Positions 27,788 to 49,384 of a stretch of DNA of 64,000 nt are shown here, in pieces (the first letter of the stretch is position 1; each line of letters begins with the position of its first letter). The position numbers and the translations under genes were made by a program. The notes beneath the pieces were generated by a model that was not told the DNA's origin, did no database searches, and saw only the letters and a list, made by a program, of their open reading frames with translations. Origin of the DNA: Scatophagus argus (lineage: Eukaryota; Chordata; Actinopteri; Scatophagidae); assembly GCF_020382885.2 (NCBI RefSeq), contig NC_058499.1, forward strand, positions 11,641,872-11,705,871, in the 5' to 3' direction.

Positions 27788-27904
27788 GGCCACCCAGCAG
27801 ACAAAACTAGGACTGTATGAATACAGATTCTTGTGTAATATTTTGTAAATTTGGTATATCAAACTGGCTTATAGTTGGATCTCATCAGTTGCTCATACAC
27901 TGTA

Positions 27905-28428
27905 CAGACAAAAATATCGGGACATCTGACCATTACACCAACAGGAACTTTAATGACATTGCATTCTAACCACATTGACAGCTTTGCAGCTATAACAGCT
28001 TCCACTCTTCTAGGAATGCTTTCCACAAGATCTCGAGGGGGTGATTCTGTAGGAACTTTTGCCTGTTCATGCAGCAGAGCAATTGTGAAGGCATTGTTAG
28101 GCATTGATGTTGGACCAAAAGGCCGGGCTCACAATCTCCATTCCAGTTCATCCCAAAGGTGTTTGATGGGGTTGTGGTCAGGGTTCTGTGTGGACCAGTC
28201 AAGTTCTTCAACACCAAACTCCAGCCATGTCTTTATGGACTTTGCCTTGTGCACTGGGGTACAGTCACGCTGGAATAGAAAATGGCCTTCCCCAAACTGT
28301 TGCCAACTGTTGTCCAAAATGTCTTGGTATGCTGAAGCATTAAGATTTCCCTTCACTGGAAGTAAGGGGACAAGCCCAACCCCTGAAAAACAGCCCCATA
28401 AAGAGGTGTGTCTGGATACTTTTGTCTG
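27905..28428 (-). mobile_element. Internally deleted Tc1/mariner transposon with decayed transposase C-terminus
   Basis: The left end CAGACAAAAATATCGGGACA is repeated inverted at the right end (CAGACAAAAGTATCCAGACA), and both ends are flanked by TA, the Tc1/mariner target duplication. At 524 bp it is about a third of a full element. The minus strand still encodes fish Tc1 transposase pieces: KGNLNASAYQDILDN, DCTPVHKAKSIKTWLEF, NPDHNPIKHLWDELEW, then in another frame LVESIPRRVEAVIAA. The N-terminal DNA-binding region and the first catalytic Asp are gone. The usual catalytic Glu of NPIE reads Lys, and frames shift, so it is inactive. It begins 117 bases after the pstpip1 stop codon, inside the likely 3' UTR. 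Confidence 0.85.
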
Positions 28429-29660
28429 TACTGTGTATTTCTGTTATAAGGGTCTTTAAAGCCTCTAAAAGCAGGATTTTAAAACTTTCACTTTGGCTCC
28501 CCCTGCAGTAGAAACATAGAGGACATAGTGTCAGAGTACACCCTGTGGACGTAACCCAAAAAACATGTTGATGAGGGCTGACTCATGCCATTAGAATTAG
28601 AATATCACATGATAATCCTGCAGATAGGGGCTTTCATATACAGCAGCCCGAGACAGTGTGGAATACTGAATTATTTATTGCTATGGCACATATTCATTTA
28701 ACTTCGCCCTTACAGCTGGTGTGCTGAGGCCTCCTCATACCAACGGCAGCTGGGTGAAATAGTGATCTGCTGCACAAGGTCACTGCACTAAGTTTATGCA
28801 TATACTGTAGTATTCTTGTATAGTCCTAAATGTTGAGCAGAATATTTGGTTTCTATTGCTGGCTTGTACATAATTTCTAGTTCTTATTGTGTGGTTACTG
28901 TTTCTTTGATTATTTGTGAATGAAAACCTATTTATTCAATATGAATTTGTTTTTACATACCATCGCTGTTGTTTCAACAAACACCATTTGTGACAAAACC
29001 ATGCTTCTTTTTTTTCTCTGAATGATGCATCTATTGTAGTGAAGGTTGTTCTTCTTAATGTGGATTACAGGAAGACCAGAAAAATCCAAACAAAGGAGCT
29101 GAAATGCAACAGGGCCACTATTCTCAGGTCATGTGCAGGATCAGGATCAGTCAGCTCGATTTGGTTCAAAGATATTCAGTTACTCTGCAACAAGTGATGT
29201 ATTGCTAACTCAGTATGTATCAACTAACCAAAGCGGAATCACTTTAAGTGTGGACGAAGGGCCATAATGGTTGTTAGGTGTCCACGAGATGCTCCAGAAG
29301 CACGTATAACTAGATGTAGTGATTCCTATTTAAGTTTTAGTATGAAATTCTTACAGGTGTAACATTTTAGGTCCATGGGAACATAAGATAAAGTCATAAA
29401 GCTTTTAAGATTAGACACAGACCAAAGCGCCAGGCTGAATGTGTGAACCTTTTACAACCTTTCCCTAACACCTGAACTTTGACATGTCTTTTTTGAGACC
29501 AGGCAGACTGGTTTCTCCAATGACAACAGTCGCTGAATATCAGCTTTGTCTCGACAGAAAGGAAAAGTCACATTTGGTGTAGCAACTTCATCTCTCTTAA
29601 AAGATGTGAAATTTGTGCTAAGAGAAAATAAAATTGAAAAAGGCGTTCAAACTTCTCCCA
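28429..29660 (+). other. Probable rest of the pstpip1 3' UTR
   Basis: No open frame of note. An AATAAA on the plus strand at 29627-29632 is the first canonical poly(A) signal I found downstream of pstpip1, implying a 3' UTR of about 1.85 kb that includes the Tc1 remnant. This is an inference from the signal position only. Confidence 0.35.
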
Positions 29661-35110: not shown

Positions 35111-35944
35111 CTATTTCATAGCAGGAGAGAAGCTGAAATCAGAATGCGTGCCAAATATTTTATCCCAGTGGCTGAAGTGTGGTGCAAAGTTGGTGTTGGG
35201 TTTCTGATGGTGAACATCGTGTTTGCTGGGCCCTCCGTAGATGCCAAATGGTATCATGCGTGATGTGGACCAGGGGAAATCATAGCCACAGTGATCCTCT
35301 ATAGACACGTAGACATGCAGCACCATGAATGTCCATGTGGTAAGTAGGTGGCATCTCAGGATCACAGGATTGAGAGTAGTCCAAAAGCCGACTGTAACCA
35401 GCTCCCATCCTCCAAGACACTGAGTGGCCAGAGCAAAGGGAGAGGAGTATTTATGATGAATCGCATGGAAAGTGACATACAGCCAGCGGATCCTGTGATG
35501 GAGCAGGTGCCAGATGAAGTACTGGAAGTCAAAGAGCAGAAGGTTACCTATCACCCCAGCTATCAGCTCCAGCAGGGATGGAGCCTGGTCTGGCAAGTCC
35601 ACAGGTGGCCTCCATGCCCACTGGGCCACTGACGCTGGGAGCACAAGTAACACATGGTTGTAGAAAGTGACACCTGCACAGTGCAGCAGCGTAGCGGCTG
35701 AAGGACGATGGTTGGGTTGGATCTTGAATTGCTGGACCCATGTCCATCTATCTCCCATGATGTCACAAACAAGGAAAGGAAGGCACAAGACAAAGTAGGA
35801 AGATACGGTCAGAATGATGGGGAAGAGAGGAGATCTCAAATAGTCTCTGTAGTTGAGCCTCAGGCTGTCCCACAGAGGCTGCAGCAAGGAGTCGTTTCCT
35901 AAGCATCTTATCCAGAGATCTATGCCGGCATCTGAAAGATCCAT
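35111..35944 (-). CDS. Cholesterol 25-hydroxylase-like protein (fatty acid hydroxylase superfamily), copy 1
   Basis: One uninterrupted frame of 277 residues, intronless as in human CH25H. Di-iron histidine boxes are intact: HLLHH at 146-150, HAIHH at 160-164 and HDVHH at 242-246, followed by FAPHFSHWDKIFGT. Several hydrophobic segments fit an ER membrane enzyme. Segments such as LLQPLWDSLR, FALATQ and FPWSTSRMIPFGIYGG are close to human CH25H, which makes 25-hydroxycholesterol, an interferon-induced regulator of sterol synthesis. The bases just upstream (TTCACTTCAG|GATG) look like an acceptor, so a non-coding 5' exon may exist. Fish have several ch25h and ch25h-like genes and I cannot say which this is, so no symbol is given. 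Confidence 0.9.
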   Translation of the reverse strand: MDLSDAGIDLWIRCLGNDSLLQPLWDSLRLNYRDYLRSPLFPIILTVSSYFVLCLPFLVCDIMGDRWTWVQQFKIQPNHRPSAATLLHCAGVTFYNHVLLVLPASVAQWAWRPPVDLPDQAPSLLELIAGVIGNLLLFDFQYFIWHLLHHRIRWLYVTFHAIHHKYSSPFALATQCLGGWELVTVGFWTTLNPVILRCHLLTTWTFMVLHVYVSIEDHCGYDFPWSTSRMIPFGIYGGPSKHDVHHQKPNTNFAPHFSHWDKIFGTHSDFSFSPAMK

Positions 35945-38551
35945 CCTGAAGTGAAAATCACAAGGTGAATATCTTATGGACGTTTAGGGTAGGTAAACGA
36001 TCAGCCAGAAACAGTGGCTATGTTAAAGACTTAATACAATGAGTGTCCGTTTGCTCTTCGCTCACTGTGTGCTATCAAGTGACGGATGGGTGCAACACTG
36101 CAACAAATTATTCATACGCCTACACTCTGGTTAACTGGCAACATATATCGCACCACTTGATAAAATGTTTAGAACTGGAAATAATTCCCAAATCCTATTT
36201 TCTGTTGGTGCTATATCTCTGGTATTTTACGCAGACACACCAACAAATATGCAGTAATTATTGTCCTATTCTCTTAGGGTTTGTTAGCAGTCTCTTGTGT
36301 TTCCCCCCTTTCTCTGTGTCTTTTTGTCCCTATATGTTCTGTATGTTTGGTGTATTTCGGATCAGAGCTGGGTGGAACTTCTTCCTGGCGATTCTCCTGG
36401 ACATCTTCAATTCATTTCCCTGCAATCAACTGCACCCCAATCCAGCAGTATTTATGAACCAGTTCATTCACTCCATCTCTGCCAGATCACACAGAGACCA
36501 GTCACCTATAGTGGTATACTACGCTTCAGGTCAGCTCTTGCATATCTTGATGCTCTTGCTTTTGCTCTTGCTTACTAGCACCCATCTCTTGCAACTCAGG
36601 CTGACTGTCTGATTCAGCCTTCCCTGTTAAGCTATGCTTCCATGCATTGTCTTGAGATCCCTGCAAGCTGGAAATCACCCTCAGCTCTCTTCATCGAACA
36701 CATTACACTCAGCAGCGACACAAAACAGCTTCACCTATTTGATTCACCAATTCCCCTCTGCAGGAGAAAAGACTGTTTAATCAGCCAAGACTTCATTTTC
36801 CGTAAAACCTTTTGCAAATAAAGTAGTATTGTTGATTATTTAACTTACATGCTGTGAGTGGTCTGCTTATGGCTCCCCTGCCTTTGCAATTCTTAACAGT
36901 ACTCTGTTATTATTGCTGTTGCTACGCATCTCTTTTTGTATGCCCCTTCTCTCCAGCTCTCTCGCTGTCTCCCTCCCACTCGCTCTCTCTTTTTTGCTGT
37001 GTTTTGGTGCACAGAGATGAGTATTTGTACTGATGCAACACAGATTTCACCGGAAAGTCTGTTTCAATCAGAATAATGTGCACAACATTAGTGTAAAAAT
37101 CTAATATAAAATACTGATATCTCTCCAGCCTTGATTTTCCAGCATAGTGATGTTTGAAACGGGCCCATTGCTGCTTCAGAAGGTCTAGAACAGGTATGAA
37201 ATGTGACCTTCGATGATATTGTTTTCACATGTCAAGAACTGACTTTGAACCTCAGCGTTTAAGACAACATGATTGATACCTCTCAACGGACTTAATGGCT
37301 GTTTGAGCGGCCGTCCGGAAAGAAGTGGCGATTTTACACTCCCAAACTGTAGAGGGCGACAAAACAAACCTATACCTACTGCTCCACGGAGGAACTTTCG
37401 AGGAACCCGTCTGTAAGGTAAATGTCCACAATCTCTATACGTTAGTCTGGTTTTGGTTGTGTCCTGGACCAGTTGTTACCCCTCCCCCCCCCCGCCCACC
37501 AATTGACTCGGAGTTTTTTGTCGTATGTACTGACACAAAATTACTGCGCTTGCTGCTTGTTATAACCGTCAAATACCGTACTTTGCCTTTAGGCTAGCAT
37601 ATAGCGCAGTGGGTTGAATTGAAATGAAAACAGTTAAAGCAACTTTTGACACTTTCGGAATAGACTCGGACATTTGTGTGTACTTGAGTTAATGTCACCG
37701 TCCAACAATAGCACCGTTTGGTTTAAACATTAACGAGACACTTCCACCTTCACGACTGCTTGTAAAGTTTAACTGCGAGAACAAAATGTAACGAAGGAAA
37801 AACGTTAACTTGTTTAACTGAAGATGCTGCTTGCTCCCACCAACTTTTACAGTTGGACCCATTCAAACCTTATCACATTTCCTGGTTAAAGTCCAGCGGA
37901 AATTTGAGTACGTGAGCTGATTCACGGAGACAAACTTGTTGTGGCCTACACAAGCCGAGCAGGCTGGGTAGTAGTAACGTTACTTCATATCTGTAGATCT
38001 TTCACAGTTGGATTTAGTTTTTGAGGGAAGCGGAGTAAAGTAAGTAGGCCCAAATTTAGTCTTCTTTTACTCATGACGCTTTTTTTTGTTGAACTGTCCA
38101 CTACTCGTGTCCACAACAAAGCCGAAACCTGTGATGAGGGGTCTCAAGTAGAGCCGAACAGGTTGGGTGTCATTGTTTTAGCAGTTATTGTTCTTCAAAC
38201 TGTGTGGCAGCAGTTTTGGGAAGACCCCAGTTTGTTTCTGTGGACAAAGGACATAAAGAAATGCTTTTCTTGTTTGACTGCTTGATTGTCCTCGTGTCAG
38301 TGAATAACTTCACTAAGGCTCTTCTTGCAACTGAATGAGAATAAAAAACCTGTCACCAGGTTTCACAGTCTTGTAGAAACTCTTCTTAGAACAGTGGATG
38401 CTCCTCTAAAAGCAGCATTAATGGCCATACTAAACACAAATGGGTGTTATGTTTGTGTGTCCGTGTACTTTTGTCTCTGCAATGTTTCTAATGTATGTGA
38501 AAGAAGCAGGTGAATCTTTTATAATCAGTGTCACTGTTTTCATTCATTCAG
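35945..38551. other. Gene-free interval before the CCCH/CHY gene
   Basis: Some 2.6 kb without a gene I can support. Open frames at 36043-36612 and 36297-36578 are hydrophobic and T-rich and show no family motif. An AATAAA lies near 36818. CpG-bearing sequence near 37300-37430 with a possible donor (GTAAG|GTAAAT at about 37420) could be the non-coding first exon of the downstream gene; this is a guess. Confidence 0.4.
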
Positions 38552-42367: not shown

Positions 42368-43255
42368 TTGCGAAGGAGATTATTGCCTTAATTTTTAAAA
42401 ACACATCATATGATTCATTACATGATTTCATTGAAATTGTCTGCTTTCCCCAAGAAATCCTGTTGTTATGATCCTTCAGTGTGAAGGGCTTTAATGTTGA
42501 AAAGCCTGAAGATTTTGTCTGGATTGAATTGGAGGACCTGTGATTGTTTGTTCAACTCAGGCACGTTTATCGCACGTTTTTCACTCTTCAAGTTACTAAC
42601 TTATAGTAGGACAGACACAAACATTAAAAGAGAAATGCATGCTGATCATTTTCATAAATTGCACTTGGTTTTAAAAGATCAACCTGGTTAGTTAAAGTAC
42701 TCTAGCTTTCTAATCTAGCGGTCCTGATTGATCCTCTCATTTTAAGAGATTTTACAGATCAATAACTGCATTAATTTACATGTATGGACTAAAATACAAA
42801 ATAAGTCGGATCAGTTTATGATGCTTCAGCTTGAGGTGTCCAAATTCTTCTTCTGCAACTAAATGTTGCAGAAAACATTCTGACGATTTTTCCTAAACCG
42901 AACTGACACGTCATTACATGTCATGTGAACAGTTTCATCAGTGCTAACATAATTCAGTGTTAAGTCATTTTCATTTTAAGAGGTTGAGAATTTTCTGTGA
43001 AACAAAATGATGGTCTATTCAGCAGGTCAGAAAGCAGAAATATTTTCATCCTTCTTTTCATGCATTAAAATGTTTAACCTCACTCTCGCTGGTAAGAGTC
43101 AGTTTATTTTGTCTGATGCATGTTCTTGAATGGTCCTGTTGATCTTTTTCTGAACGTCTGTTTGTCTGTATTTGAGCTGCTGGGTTTACAAAAAAAAAAA
43201 AAAAAGCTGCTGGTGTGTTTGGAGCGAGAGAAAATCCTTTTCAGTCAAACTCCAC
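42368..43255 (+). other. Interval between the CCCH/CHY gene and ch25h-like copy 2
   Basis: AT-rich with no gene. It should contain the 3' UTR of the CCCH/CHY gene (an ATTAAA occurs near 42625) and the upstream region of the hydroxylase-like gene. An A-run lies at 43190-43206. Confidence 0.4.
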
Positions 43256-43263
43256 TATATAAA
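43256..43263 (+). promoter_or_regulatory. TATA box of ch25h-like copy 2
   Basis: TATATAAA lies about 62-69 bases before the chosen ATG (43325). With the usual spacing of about 30 bases, transcription would start near 43287-43295, close to the start of an AGC repeat. This supports the downstream ATG rather than the in-frame ATG at 43172, which would lie upstream of the TATA box. Confidence 0.6.
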
Positions 43264-43291
43264 GGCAGAACTTTGTCTTGATCCTGCTCCT

Positions 43292-43292
43292 C

Positions 43293-43322
<30 letters not shown>
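43292..43322 (+). repeat. AGC/CAG triplet repeat in the predicted 5' UTR
   Basis: About ten uninterrupted AGC units end two bases before the ATG of the hydroxylase-like gene. They are in frame with it and would read as poly-Ser if translation began upstream. Confidence 0.9.
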
Positions 43323-43324
<2 letters not shown>

Positions 43325-43325
<1 letters not shown>

Positions 43326-44155
43326 TGTTGAACATTAGTGAGCTTCCTCTGCAGCTCCTGCCCTCCAGGGCCTCAGACCGTCTCCTGCAGCCGTTCTGGG
43401 ACTATTTGCTTTTTCACCACAGGCCTCTCATCTCGTCACCTTTTTTTCCCGTCCTGCTCGCCTTCTCCAGCTATTTCTTCTTCAGTATACCTTTTGCTGC
43501 CCTGGACCTTCTGGGAGAAAGAGTGCATTTATTCTATCAGTACAAGATCCAGCCGGACAGGCAGCCAACAGTGGGAATGATGGCTAAGAGCTTCTTGACG
43601 GCGCTGTATAACCACGTGTTCTTTGTCCTGCCAACTGTCATAATTGCCATGTTCATCCTGCCTACACCAACACTGCCACAGGATGCTCCTACTCTATATC
43701 AAGTATTCACTGAGGGACTGGCTGTGCTTCTCCTCTTTGACACTCAGTACTACATTTGGCACGTCATACATCACAAACATCCACAGCTTTACCGGTGGAT
43801 CCACGCAATCCACCATGAATACATGGCACCTTTCTCCTGGTCGACCGAGCAGCTCAGCATCCCAGAACTCATGACTGTTGGATTCTGGAGCAACCAGGAT
43901 CCAGTTCTTTTGAAGTGCCACCCACTGAGCACATGGTGTATCACAGTTTTCAGTATCTGGATGTCTGTGGAGGACCACATAGGCTATGACCTGCCGTGGA
44001 CTCTCAACCACCTGGTGCCTTTTGGCTTGCTGGGTGGTGCGCCGGCTCATGACATGCACCACCAGAAGCCAAGCAGTAACTACGCTCCTTTCTTCAGCCA
44101 CTGGGACAGAATCTTTGGCACTGCGGTTCCCCTGAAGAAAAAAACCATAAGATGA
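43325..44155 (+). CDS. Cholesterol 25-hydroxylase-like protein, copy 2
   Basis: Single-exon frame of 276 residues from the ATG at 43325, chosen because the TATA box at 43256 makes the earlier in-frame ATG (43172) unlikely to be transcribed. Histidine boxes HVIHH (146-150), HAIHH (160-164) and HDMHH (242-246) sit at the same positions as in copy 1. The two proteins align without gaps through residue 270, with about 43 percent identity by my hand count. Several membrane segments fit an ER enzyme of the fatty acid hydroxylase superfamily. It diverges more from human CH25H than copy 1 does (for example SWSTEQLSIPELM for FALATQ...WEL), so its sterol substrate is less certain. The tail KKKTIR is basic and could be a dilysine-type ER signal, though not at the classic spacing. 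Confidence 0.9.
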
Positions 44156-45039: not shown

Positions 45040-48000
45040 TCAGTGAAGACTCTTGTTCAAATACTGCACAAACATGTTGGAAATTTGTCCGCTCTTCTCT
45101 GTTGGGTGCATCTTGGTGTAGCTGATGAACTGGCGCCGTAGCTTCCTGAGCTCTGCCATGTTGATGCTCCTGGTGAGCTCGACGTTAAACATCAGGTTAA
45201 GGTAGTTTGAATGGAAAGCGTTCTGCCTGCAAGCTGCTCCCACATGAAGGCAGAAAATCAGCGTCATGTTTTCTAAAGTACAGCTAAGCACCGAAGTAAC
45301 TAGAAAAAAGTGTTCAAATGTATCTAAAGGTCACAGTATTGCATCTTCCCTTTTAAAGGGAACGACACAAAGAAATAACATAAAGGACAGGAAGTTACTG
45401 ACGTAATCTAAAATTATGCACCTGCCATTAAAATGTTGACCGGGGAGGAACCGAATGTACTATTTAGTTGGTTTCTGCTTGGACCAACACATTCAAAGGA
45501 AAAAATCAAAGTGTTTGCTTCTAAGAACGTCTCAAACGGTGCAGCTGCCAATGAAAATCCACTTATCTATGTAATTTGGTTTCTCTCCTCCATACGCATC
45601 CCACAGTGTGTTATTACAGACAAGACCTTTAACAGTGATCGGCTGCTGTGCCTTTCATTTAACTTCTTTGATGGACATGCATTCATCCCCTTCTAATAAG
45701 TCATTTGATATGGAGTGCTTTGTCTCCTGCTGCTGAGGGAATGTGACTTTCCTTGCGAGGCAGATGATGAAAATGAGTGGGCACAAATTAAAAAAGGCAA
45801 AACAAGTTTCAGATTAAAGTTGTGAAAGATCAGCGCTACCCGGACTCAAAACACAACTGCCAGAATCTGTTAAACGCAAAAAAAGATTCTTCGGAATTGA
45901 GTTTTAAATTTAAAAAAATGTGGACATGCAAATGAGTATAAAGGATATCTTTTCTGTTGCTCCTGGAACTGAAATGAGATCCCCGGGAACACTTGTCTTC
46001 TGTGCGTTAAAGATTGCCTGAAAAGAAATTCAAGAACTTTTACCACACAACACACAAGGTTATGTTCATGCTGACTAATACAGGTCCCAGGGTGTTTTGG
46101 ATTGTAGGGAGTTCGAGAAGTGGGATCTGCACACTGAGAATTAAATGGACTGATGAATCACAGATAGAAAGTAACATTTACAGGGAATTTCTGCCAAAAA
46201 CAAACAAATAAACAAAAAAAGGCCACCAGCAGGTGTACTCAATAGCTTATTAAGGAAACAGAGCAAGTGATTTCTCATTGGCTTAAAGCAATTAGCATCA
46301 CACAGGCGCATCAATAGGTGGATAAATAATTACAGGAGCAAATGTTATTTACGAAACATGACACACAACCAGGCAGTGGGAGGACACACGGGTGAAAGCA
46401 AAGCATTCAGGGAGTCCATATATAAAGACATGCTGTTCACTCAGTACGCTGGACCTGCTTTTAACATTTAACTCCCTTCTTCTCCCGAGCCTGTGTGGTC
46501 AATAACAGTTGTGAGCCGGACTCCAGTATAGTGTTAAAACAAGACAACTCAAGTGTCAAAATCAATCAACATTAGGGTACCGATTTGACTCTCAGCTGCA
46601 GGGGGAGTTTCCCTCCTACACCCTCATTCATCACTGTGTTCTCCCTCCGTAAATGTATTGACTTCCGTATTAGTATATATACATTTATGTATTGCCTTTT
46701 TTTTTTTTTTTTTTTTTAAACACCTCATCTCCTGGAGTGGAATTATTTGCCTACCTATTGACATTATTTGATGGTTTGTGTGTTGCAATCACTCAATCTG
46801 TTCCCTTGATTTGCTATTCATGCCATATCCACGTCATACGAGATGAACTGCAGACACCGGAAAGATTCCCATGTTTACGTCACAAAAACGTTGTGACGAG
46901 AAGATAACACTGCGTCCATTAAATCTGAGTTTAATTACCTTGAACAATGGACTTCGATTGGCTTGAGACGTCCATGTTTGTTTGGCTGTCAGGCATTTCT
47001 GCCAAGCCAGATATATCAGCATTTTCGGAGAAGCAAGAGTTTCTAGGTCATAATTGCAGCTTGGGTGTTGACGTTGACACTATCCTCAAGTTGAAAACTG
47101 GTAATTACAACAACTCTGATATAACATTTACTTGGCATTAGTACACCAACTACTGGGCTGTAAAGACCTGCATTTAATGTACTGAAGAAAATGATGTGGA
47201 GTGAAGATTTTGTAAATTTATGTTCAGATGAAACATTTTTCTAAACATGACTCCTCCTTATTTTTAATTTTCAATGTGTGGGTCTCACTTTGGGAATCTG
47301 AAATGTGGCGTAACTCAAAAGACAGAATGGTTTCTGCAAAAAACCAAACTGAAAACACGAGAAGCCATACCATTAAGACATCCTGCGTGATCTTGTCCAA
47401 CTCGTACAAGAAGTTTGCGGATGACAACGGTTGCTGCGGAGAAAAAGAATATCTCTTTTACCGTCAAGTAATCAAAAAGGCAGCATGACAGGGCATGTAG
47501 CTAATGAACACTGTGTGCTTGTGAAACAAAACAGCGCGTGCGTATGTCTCGTACACTCTGCATAGCCTGGTTCGGCGGGGGTGCTTTTCTTTTGAAAAGT
47601 GCATCACAAATGGCTTCATACGGAAGCGTGTCGTCTTTCAGGATGGTGAAGAGGGGATTGTCCCATCGGTTTCTGGAGTCTGGAGCTTCAAATCTCAGCA
47701 CTAATGCATTAAAGCTGCGAAAAACAAATCAGATGACAGCCAATTTACAAAAAAAAAAAAAAAACAAACAAAAACTGGACACTTTTGTCGGTGAGGTGCA
47801 TAAAGGCATTTTTTAAAAACCTATCCAAAAATAAAGACAGTGCTGCCACAGACGGACATGCTTGTCACTCACATGTCCTGGGTGTACTGCTCGGCAGGAT
47901 CTCTGTCGGTGTTCCATGTTGAACTCACTTCATCTGACGTCAAACAGTATACCTTCATCAAACAAAAGCATGGGATATTGACTTGGGCCAGTGGTTTTCA

Positions 48001-49384
48001 CATGCTGAAAATGTACTGGTTATTTCGCCAGCATACTTACCAGACAGTGTGGCGTCTGTGCGTGCTTGGTGAGACAGAACAGTTCATATCGGTAGCCTGT
48101 AAGACATTTTAACTTTCAAAAAGTAGCAGCATAAACAAACCGTACTGTTTGCATTACACAGTACTGTTTGCAAAATTTACCTTTAATGTAATTTAATGAA
48201 TCCAAAATTACAATGTGATCCTTGTTGATTTTCCTAAAGGACAAATAAAGAAAAGGTTACAAGGGCTGCGAACATCACTGATGAACCGAGTCCACAAAAC
48301 AGATCTGGAAAAAACCCACCTTTCTACTTCAGCTTTCAGGGACGCTCTGAGATTTTTTTCCTTTTGGGAATCTACAACATATCCAACAAATTTATATTAC
48401 AGCAGGAGTATGCAAAAGTTGTGACTGTGCTATCAAACGATGGAAGTGTTATTTCATTGATTCAGCATCAGTTTTGATTTATACATTTTCATTTGATGAG
48501 AAGTTGACATCTTCTTTGTGTTTTTTTTTACTGTCCCAAATACAACATTTATTTATTTTACATTTAGTAGCACGTTTGCTTATTATCAGTACTGTTTCTA
48601 TTGCATTATTGATCATTCAACTAATTTTAGCTGCCGATATCAGGAAATTCATGATACAGGGCCGTGAAAGAGATCCTGTAAGCCTGAAGTCAGACCCAAA
48701 TATCCAAGTTATGAATGTACAGCTGTACCTACCGACATGTCAAAGAAAAAAACTACGGCTTCTTTTGTATAGAGTAGCGACTGTAATCCTGGTATGTCGT
48801 AAACTGTTACGATACGAGCCTTAATTACACTGTAGGATACACTTGATGAAACTCTGCCGCCAAACTCCATTCAAAATACTATTAAATTACTGCTGCGCCC
48901 CCCCCCAAAAAAACACACAAAAAAAACATAGCCGGTGGTGCACGAATGAGAAAGTCCTAATCAGTTTTCATCACAACTGCTACATAATCTTCACATTCAG
49001 AAACATGCCTATTTTAATAACACCATGTTTTTATGAAACCGGTTCCGCTGTTATGCACCACATTTCTACGCCATTAATAAATGCGCCTCAGTTCAGAAAT
49101 ACTGCGGTTGAATACCGTATGAAGTATTTGGTGCATAGCTGACATGCAAACTGACTTTTGACTGCTGATAAAATTTTAACACCTACAGACATGTGATAAA
49201 CAACAGCACTGACACGGAGCTAGCTTAACTTGCCTGCGTAGACGGCGTTTTTCTCAACGTGCGGGGCTTCACCTCCCACAATATGAACCTTTCGGTCACA
49301 GTTATGTTCAAAATACACCTTCAGTTCTTCTGCCCTTCGTGTTTTACCACTACAGGGGTAACCACACATCACTATTAGAGGCAT
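45040..49384 (-). CDS. kti12: KTI12, Elongator-associated P-loop protein
   Basis: Nine exons on the minus strand (5' to 3'): 49234-49384, 48320-48371, 48181-48233, 48041-48096, 47873-47952, 47555-47714, 47371-47433, 45949-46017, 45040-45183; 275 residues. The protein opens MPLIVMCGYPCSGKTRRAEE with a Walker A motif (GYPCSGKT). It carries DHIVILDSLNYIKGYRYELF (exons 3-4), LRFEAPDSRNRWDNPLFT, APPPNQAMQS and the C-terminal LRRQFISYTKMHP, all as in human KTI12. It is shorter than human (354), lacking the disordered insert before LRFEAPDS. KTI12 works with Elongator in modifying tRNA wobble uridines. Two introns are unusual: intron 1 is GC-AG (GCAG|GCAAGT) and the last is AT-AC. The start at MPL was preferred over an ATG six codons upstream, by homology. 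Confidence 0.93.
45184..45948 (-). other. kti12: U12-type AT-AC intron of kti12 (last intron)
   Basis: The donor reads GAAAAG|ATATCCTTT, an exact match to the U12 AT-AC 5' site. A branch-site match TACCTTAAC lies at 45196-45204 (minus strand). The intron ends in AC 13 bases beyond the branch adenosine. Joining in phase 0 gives ATEK-VELTRSINMAELRKLRRQ, which aligns residue for residue with human TTEHLRFTRPLTMAELSRLRR. No GT-AG pair gives this alignment. Confidence 0.85.

What the first reader, a model, noticed from the sequence alone, without database searches (positions are those of the whole stretch)
45184..45948. A textbook AT-AC (U12-type) intron in kti12
Seen: donor ATATCCTTT, branch match TACCTTAAC, and AC end 13 bases after the branch adenosine, all on the minus strand. 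Splicing there in phase 0 restores a gap-free match to the human KTI12 C-terminus. U12 introns are rare, AT-AC ones rarer, and I recall human KTI12 as a single-exon gene. The intron would therefore be either an old minor-class intron lost in mammals, perhaps when the gene was retroposed, or a gain in fish.
Basis: partly seen in the sequence, partly recalled or inferred. Interest (0 to 1): 0.75.

Follow-up and report, generated by a model that had tools for sequence, protein, structure and literature searches.

The report
Minor-class AT-AC intron in fish kti12
The last intron of the fish gene kti12 looks like a genuine intron of the rare kind that a separate, minor splicing machine removes; other bony fishes show the same marks, and mammals probably lost it when the gene was copied back from its RNA.

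Summary
Confirmed. The window matches Scatophagus argus: the nine-exon kti12 model (49384-45040, minus strand) gives a 275-aa protein identical to a public S. argus record. Intron 8 (45948-45184, 765 nt, phase 0) has donor ATATCCTTT, branch TACCTTAAC and AC 13 nt after the branch A. Of 127 in-frame, stop-free joins tried, only this one is gap-free. Conservation was read through proteins. Of 120 listed, 11 have a damaged junction here, and six of these read Ile-Ser-Phe after exon 8, as ATATCCTTT would. Of 20 short fragments with a residue before exon 9, 18 have Asn, His or Tyr (codons that fit AC and exclude AG); 14 of 17 testable tails fit a U12 branch, against 18 of 250 background windows. 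A review calls human KTI12 a retrogene inside TXNDC12, and retroposition is a published route of U12-intron loss. So: an ordinary U12 AT-AC intron, probably older than the salmon-percomorph split and probably lost in mammals by retroposition. No RNA reads or non-teleost gene structures could be read. It is a new example of a known kind.

The parts
45184..45948 (-). kti12 intron 8, AT-AC, U12-type, phase 0, 765 nt
45940..45948 (-). 5' splice site ATATCCTTT (perfect match to the U12 AT-AC consensus, which is recalled; C at +5 and +6)
   Evidence: read as Ile-Ser-Phe in 6 of 120 listed proteins
45196..45204 (-). branch-site match TACCTTAAC, 8 of 9 to TTCCTTRAC (consensus recalled); branch A at 45197
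   Evidence: compatible tails in 14 of 17 testable fragments
45184..45185 (-). 3' splice site AC, 13 nt after the branch A
   Evidence: Asn/His/Tyr before exon 9 in 18 of 20 fragments
45949..46017 (-). kti12 exon 8 (69 nt), ends ...VPGATEK
45040..45183 (-). kti12 exon 9 (144 nt with stop), starts VELTRSIN
45040..49384 (-). kti12 coding region, 9 exons, 275 aa, Pfam KTI12 over residues 1-271
48372..49233 (-). kti12 intron 1, GC-AG (CAG|GCAAGT), looks like an ordinary U2-type variant

Best explanation
Intron 8 of kti12 is a genuine U12-type AT-AC intron. Inferred mechanism: the U11/U12 di-snRNP recognises ATATCCTTT and the TACCTTAAC branch, U4atac/U6atac and U5 complete the minor spliceosome, and exons 8 and 9 are joined in phase 0 (K|V). 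If the intron is retained, the frame runs 12 codons (ISFILICMSTFF) to a stop, so the last 47 residues of KTI12 are lost; full-length KTI12, known as a partner of the Elongator tRNA-modifying complex, would then depend on minor splicing in these fishes. Mammals most likely lost the intron when a spliced mRNA was retroposed (human KTI12 lies in a TXNDC12 intron) and the original gene disappeared. Shown here: motifs, frame, the unique gap-free join, and signs of conservation in other fishes. Inferred: which snRNPs act, dependence on the minor spliceosome, and the loss in mammals (for the loss alone my confidence is about 0.7).
For: Donor, branch, spacing and AC terminus. The spliced product is identical over 275 aa to the S. 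argus record. The only gap-free join among 127. By pattern, 109 of the 120 listed proteins, P0001 included, carry the same uninterrupted junction (the 120 are the best of 1402 hits). 11 of the 109 come only from 'lgn' contigs of 902-1010 nt that hold a whole 813-834-nt coding frame and are therefore probably cDNA. Donor: of the 11 listed proteins with a non-standard junction, 6 read Glu-Lys-Ile-Ser-Phe. Acceptor: 18 of 20 fragments; P0052 also has Asn before exon 9, after residues Ser-Val-Leu that look intronic. Branch: 14 of 17 tails against 18 of 250 background windows, 11 of the 14 at the same 13-nt distance. One unnamed fragment whose exon 9 equals that of Oncorhynchus (47 of 47) has the same layout. 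Human KTI12 as a retrogene (PMC5408686, passage), and retroposition as the cause of three of eight vertebrate U12-intron losses (PMC2831892 section 14).
Against: No RNA reads were seen, and P0001 is a database record that may itself be a prediction. Of the 11 non-standard records, two (P0096, P0117) read Glu-Lys-Ile-Ser but not Phe, and two (P0062, P0106) are cut before exon 8 ends. The two catfish-like fragments (P0137, P0142) have Gln-His before exon 9, so a CAG acceptor one codon upstream is possible there; P0137 shows no branch match and P0142 is too short to test. The newt fragment P0140 (Trp before exon 9) does not fit. Open read-through frames hide branch distances of 9, 12, 15 and 18 (CCT TRA is a stop), so the peak at 13 is partly selection. 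Phase 0 is the rarer phase for minor introns (about 22%, PMC10639083, passages).
Confidence: 0.95

Rival explanations
1. The exons are joined by an ordinary GT-AG or GC-AG pair nearby, and the AT-AC motifs are chance.
For: Some public fish gene models have another junction at this place (11 of 120 listed).
Against: All 32 GT-AG and 22 GC-AG in-frame, stop-free joins tried give gaps and lower scores (best 283.3 and 280.0 against 311.8); the best-scoring GT join uses cat|GTCCACAT, a poor donor. The odd models differ between species, and for Centroberyx gerrardi, Hippocampus zosterae and Labrus bergylta a standard record is listed too, so forced GT-AG modelling is the likelier cause.
Confidence: 0.02
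2. It is an AT-AC intron spliced by the major (U2) spliceosome, as in some sodium-channel genes.
For: AT-AC U2-type introns exist (PMC2831892, passages).
Against: Those of the sodium-channel genes are reported with G at +5; this one has C at +5 and +6, a full ATATCCTTT and a U12 branch at 13 nt.
Confidence: 0.02
3. The intron was gained, or converted from U2-type, in ray-finned fishes rather than lost in mammals.
For: No fragment named as a non-teleost shows the U12 layout: the newt one does not fit, and the whale-shark record runs through the junction, so it is either spliced or intronless there. Most fragments are unnamed.
Against: Human KTI12 is called a retrogene, which explains a lack of introns without any gain. 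Conversion from U12 to U2 is held to be likelier than the reverse (PMC2831892, passage). The window gene has eight introns in all, and retroposition removes all at once.
Confidence: 0.2

Closest known systems
U12-type AT-AC introns (minor spliceosome)
   Same: ATATCCTTT donor, CCTTAAC branch core, 13-nt branch-to-AC distance, one minor intron among seven GT-AG or GC-AG introns
   Different: Phase 0, the rarer phase for minor introns (about 22%, PMC10639083); otherwise typical
CCDC16/ZNF830: U12 intron lost by retroposition in early mammals and in two fish lineages (PMC2831892, passage of section 8 and section 14)
   Same: U12 intron in other animals (AT-AC in the fly); intronless in mammals, put down to retroposition
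   Different: For KTI12 the fishes keep the intron; two searches found no paper that holds KTI12 with 'U12-type' or 'minor intron'
Human KTI12, called a retrogene in an intron of TXNDC12 (PMC5408686, passages; PMC3192792, one passage)
   Same: Same gene family; Pfam KTI12 hit for the fish protein
   Different: The fish gene has eight introns; none of the four WCxxC stretches in the window's six frames is TXNDC12's WCGAC (that motif is recalled)

Membership tests
U12-type AT-AC intron | Donor /ATATCCTT at the exon end (consensus recalled) | tested here: met
   ATATCCTTT at 45948-45940, directly after K of exon 8
U12-type AT-AC intron | Branch close to TTCCTTRAC (consensus recalled) | tested here: met
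   TACCTTAAC, 8 of 9
U12-type AT-AC intron | Short branch-to-3' splice site distance, AC end | tested here: met
   13 nt, AC at 45184
U12-type AT-AC intron | Not the AT-AC U2 subtype, which has G at +5 | tested here: met
   C at +5; criterion from PMC2831892 (passage)
U12-type AT-AC intron | Signals conserved in orthologues | tested here: met
   Read through proteins only: donor in 6 of 11 non-standard models among 120 listed; acceptor in 18 of 20 and branch in 14 of 17 fragments; catfish-like rows ambiguous, newt row does not fit
U12-type AT-AC intron | Splice junction seen in RNA | tested here: inconclusive
   Only indirect: intron-free frames on 11 contigs of 902-1010 nt; no S. argus reads
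U12-type AT-AC intron | Splicing depends on U11/U12/U6atac | not testable with these tools
   Needs a minor-spliceosome mutant
U12 intron lost by retroposition in mammals | Mammalian gene is an intronless retrocopy | not tested
   Taken from PMC5408686 (passage); no mammalian DNA was read
U12 intron lost by retroposition in mammals | Intron present before the mammal lineage split off | not testable with these tools
   No tetrapod, shark or invertebrate kti12 DNA was available; newt and shark fragments not decisive

The most novel reading that the evidence does not exclude
The AT-AC intron is an ancient control point that ties supply of an Elongator factor, and so tRNA wobble-uridine modification, to minor-spliceosome activity in fishes. 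Mammals escaped this control when a retrocopy replaced the gene, so minor-spliceosome mutants of fish and mammals should differ in Elongator activity.
Probability: 0.12. Interest if true: 0.55.

Novelty: new member of a known kind. Interest (0 to 1): 0.33.

Why it matters
It adds a probable case to the short list of vertebrate U12 introns whose loss can be put down to retroposition, and a gene to check in zebrafish minor-spliceosome mutants. It also shows a practical fault: 11 of the 120 KTI12 records listed have a damaged junction at this intron, consistent with gene finders that do not accept AT-AC.

Tried and rejected
The genome search tool did not complete (the same request repeated as its message asked), so S. 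argus minor snRNAs and other copies of kti12 were not looked for. A scan of viral contigs found 2 pattern matches, neither a kti12 relative. A third protein search aimed at non-teleosts gave one new fragment, catfish P0142. The motif-pair scan alone proved too permissive to be evidence. A first run of the join test had two bad reference rows of four and was repeated with six good ones (replaced). I considered that the odd isoforms of some fishes are real GT-AG alternatives; the shifts differ by species and keep the protein length at 275 in Centroberyx gerrardi and Hippocampus zosterae, which looks like protein-guided modelling, but this is not proven.

Full report
What is there. The window comes from Scatophagus argus or something indistinguishable from it at this gene: the kti12 protein assembled from nine exons on the minus strand is identical over 275 residues to the S. 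argus record P0001 (taxonomy). Pfam KTI12 covers residues 1-271. Intron 1 is GC-AG, introns 2-7 are GT-AG, and intron 8 is AT-AC: 45948-45184, 765 nt, phase 0, exon ...gaaaag|ATATCCTTT...TACCTTAACCTGATGTTTAAC|gtcgag....

Is it more than chance? The donor 9-mer alone is not remarkable in 64 kb (2 matches, 0.56 expected), and pairs of near-consensus motifs are plentiful (27 in the window, one of them with a perfect donor: this one). What makes it convincing is that protein homology fixes both ends independently. I tried all GT-AG, GC-AG and AT-AC joins between donors at 46010-45601 and acceptors at 45500-45061. 127 were in frame and free of stops (73 AT-AC, 32 GT-AG, 22 GC-AG), and exactly one was gap-free against six other fish orthologues, this AT-AC one (score 311.8; best GT-AG 283.3, best GC-AG 280.0). 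The six are five named fishes and one unnamed record, and some may be predictions themselves. A simulation of 400,000 positions puts the chance of the perfect donor at a fixed place at about 5e-6 (2 hits) and of an AC end with a near-consensus branch at about 2.3e-4.

Is it conserved? No fish DNA collection was at hand, so I read the intron ends through proteins. The first search listed the best 120 of 1402 hits; by pattern, 109 of the 120 have the standard uninterrupted junction and 11 do not. A gene model that runs on past exon 8 must read ATA TCC TTT as Ile-Ser-Phe, and 6 of the 11 do (P0029 Sparus, P0094 Hippocampus, P0103 Tetraodon, P0104 Centroberyx, P0111 Labrus, P0114 Diretmus). Of the other five, P0096 and P0117 read Ile-Ser without Phe, P0062 and P0106 are cut before the end of exon 8, and P0052 has four extra residues before exon 9, the last of them Asn. 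On the other side, a search with the window's read-through frame of exon 9 gave 21 short proteins, and a later search added one. Of these 22, 20 have a residue before exon 9. In 18 it is Asn, His or Tyr, whose codons can end in AC and cannot end in AG; the exceptions are the whale-shark record, which runs through the junction (Lys), and a newt record (Trp). Of 17 tails long enough, 14 can encode CCTTRAY at a plausible distance, 11 of them at 13 nt, against 18 of 250 background windows; the misses are P0137, P0138 and P0140. Caveat: frames with distances 9, 12, 15 or 18 would contain a stop and cannot appear, so the peak at 13 is partly selected. One unnamed fragment (P0127) has an exon 9 identical to Oncorhynchus P0108, 47 of 47, so the layout is probably shared by salmon-like and percomorph fishes. 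The catfish-like fragments P0137 and P0142 have Gln-His before the exon, so a CAG acceptor one codon upstream cannot be excluded there.

Is it spliced? Eleven of the 120 records come only from contigs of 902-1010 nt that hold a whole coding frame of 813-834 nt with the standard junction; since the window gene spans over 4.3 kb, these are most likely cDNA (inference). No junction reads of S. argus were seen.

How it most likely works. By established knowledge of the minor spliceosome (recalled), U11/U12 recognises donor and branch together and U6atac takes over the donor. The +5 C separates it from the AT-AC introns of the major spliceosome in sodium-channel genes, which are reported with +5 G (PMC2831892, passage). 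Retention would end the protein after 12 intron-coded residues and cost the last 47 residues (sequence). Whether this intron limits kti12 output is not known.

History. A review calls human KTI12 a retrogene in a TXNDC12 intron (PMC5408686, passages). The experimental paper on that locus (PMC3192792) was seen as one passage, and its main text has no match for 'retrogene', 'retropos' or 'single-exon'. Lin et al. report that retroposition explains three of eight vertebrate losses of U12 introns and describe CCDC16 as such a case (PMC2831892, a passage of section 8, section 14). Near the fish gene lie a ZNF592-like gene, a tetraspanin and an EF-hand-like stretch whose Pfam hits stay under the curated cut-offs (10 stretches tested, 4 without any hit). 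None of the four WCxxC stretches in the window's six frames is TXNDC12's WCGAC (that motif is recalled). By recall, ZNF592 and likely counterparts of the other genes (RCN2, TSPAN3) lie on human 15q24-25 while KTI12 lies on 1p32, which fits a move by retroposition; this was not tested. Loss in mammals is therefore the better reading, but without tetrapod, shark or invertebrate gene structures a gain in fishes stays possible.

Known or new. No paper in the held library has KTI12 together with 'U12-type' or 'minor intron', and searches of KTI12 with 'retrogene', 'TXNDC12' and 'intron', 'intronless', or 'zebrafish' and 'splicing' listed 1, 3, 1 and 11 papers, none on this subject by title and start of abstract. 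A zebrafish study gives 612 genes with U12-type introns by the IAOD and compares 662 such introns (PMC9501576, passages, no 'kti12' in its main text); 22% of zebrafish U12 introns are AT-AC by Table 2 of PMC7367187 (section read). kti12 may well be in those lists, which I could not open. I file it as a new member of a known kind.

Noticed in passing
49233-48372 (-): kti12 intron 1 is a GC-AG intron with a strong-looking donor, CAG|GCAAGT, so this one gene has GT-AG, GC-AG and AT-AC introns.
   Followed up: partly
P0029, P0052, P0062, P0094, P0096, P0103, P0104, P0106, P0111, P0114, P0117: 11 of 120 listed KTI12 records have a damaged junction at this intron, probably because gene finders force GT-AG. 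Short records of Champsocephalus esox (P0122) and Liparis tanakae (P0141) may be affected too.
   Followed up: partly
P0137 and P0142 (Silurus asotus): Catfish-like fragments read Gln-His before exon 9, and P0137 lacks a branch match; possibly a U12-to-U2 conversion in that lineage (P0137 is unnamed).
   Followed up: no
P0140 (Pleurodeles waltl): Newt record with Trp-Pro at the exon 9 start and an unusual upstream part; a different intron end, a retrocopy or a bad model.
   Followed up: no
35111-35983 (-) and 43154-44155 (+): Two long uninterrupted frames that resemble each other and cholesterol 25-hydroxylase by eye; only the first was tested and has a Pfam FA_hydroxylase hit. The second ends about 0.9 kb from the kti12 stop codon, convergent with it.
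   Followed up: partly
about 27875-28443 (-): Broken reading frames that look like a relic of a Tc1/mariner-type transposase (by eye).
   Followed up: no
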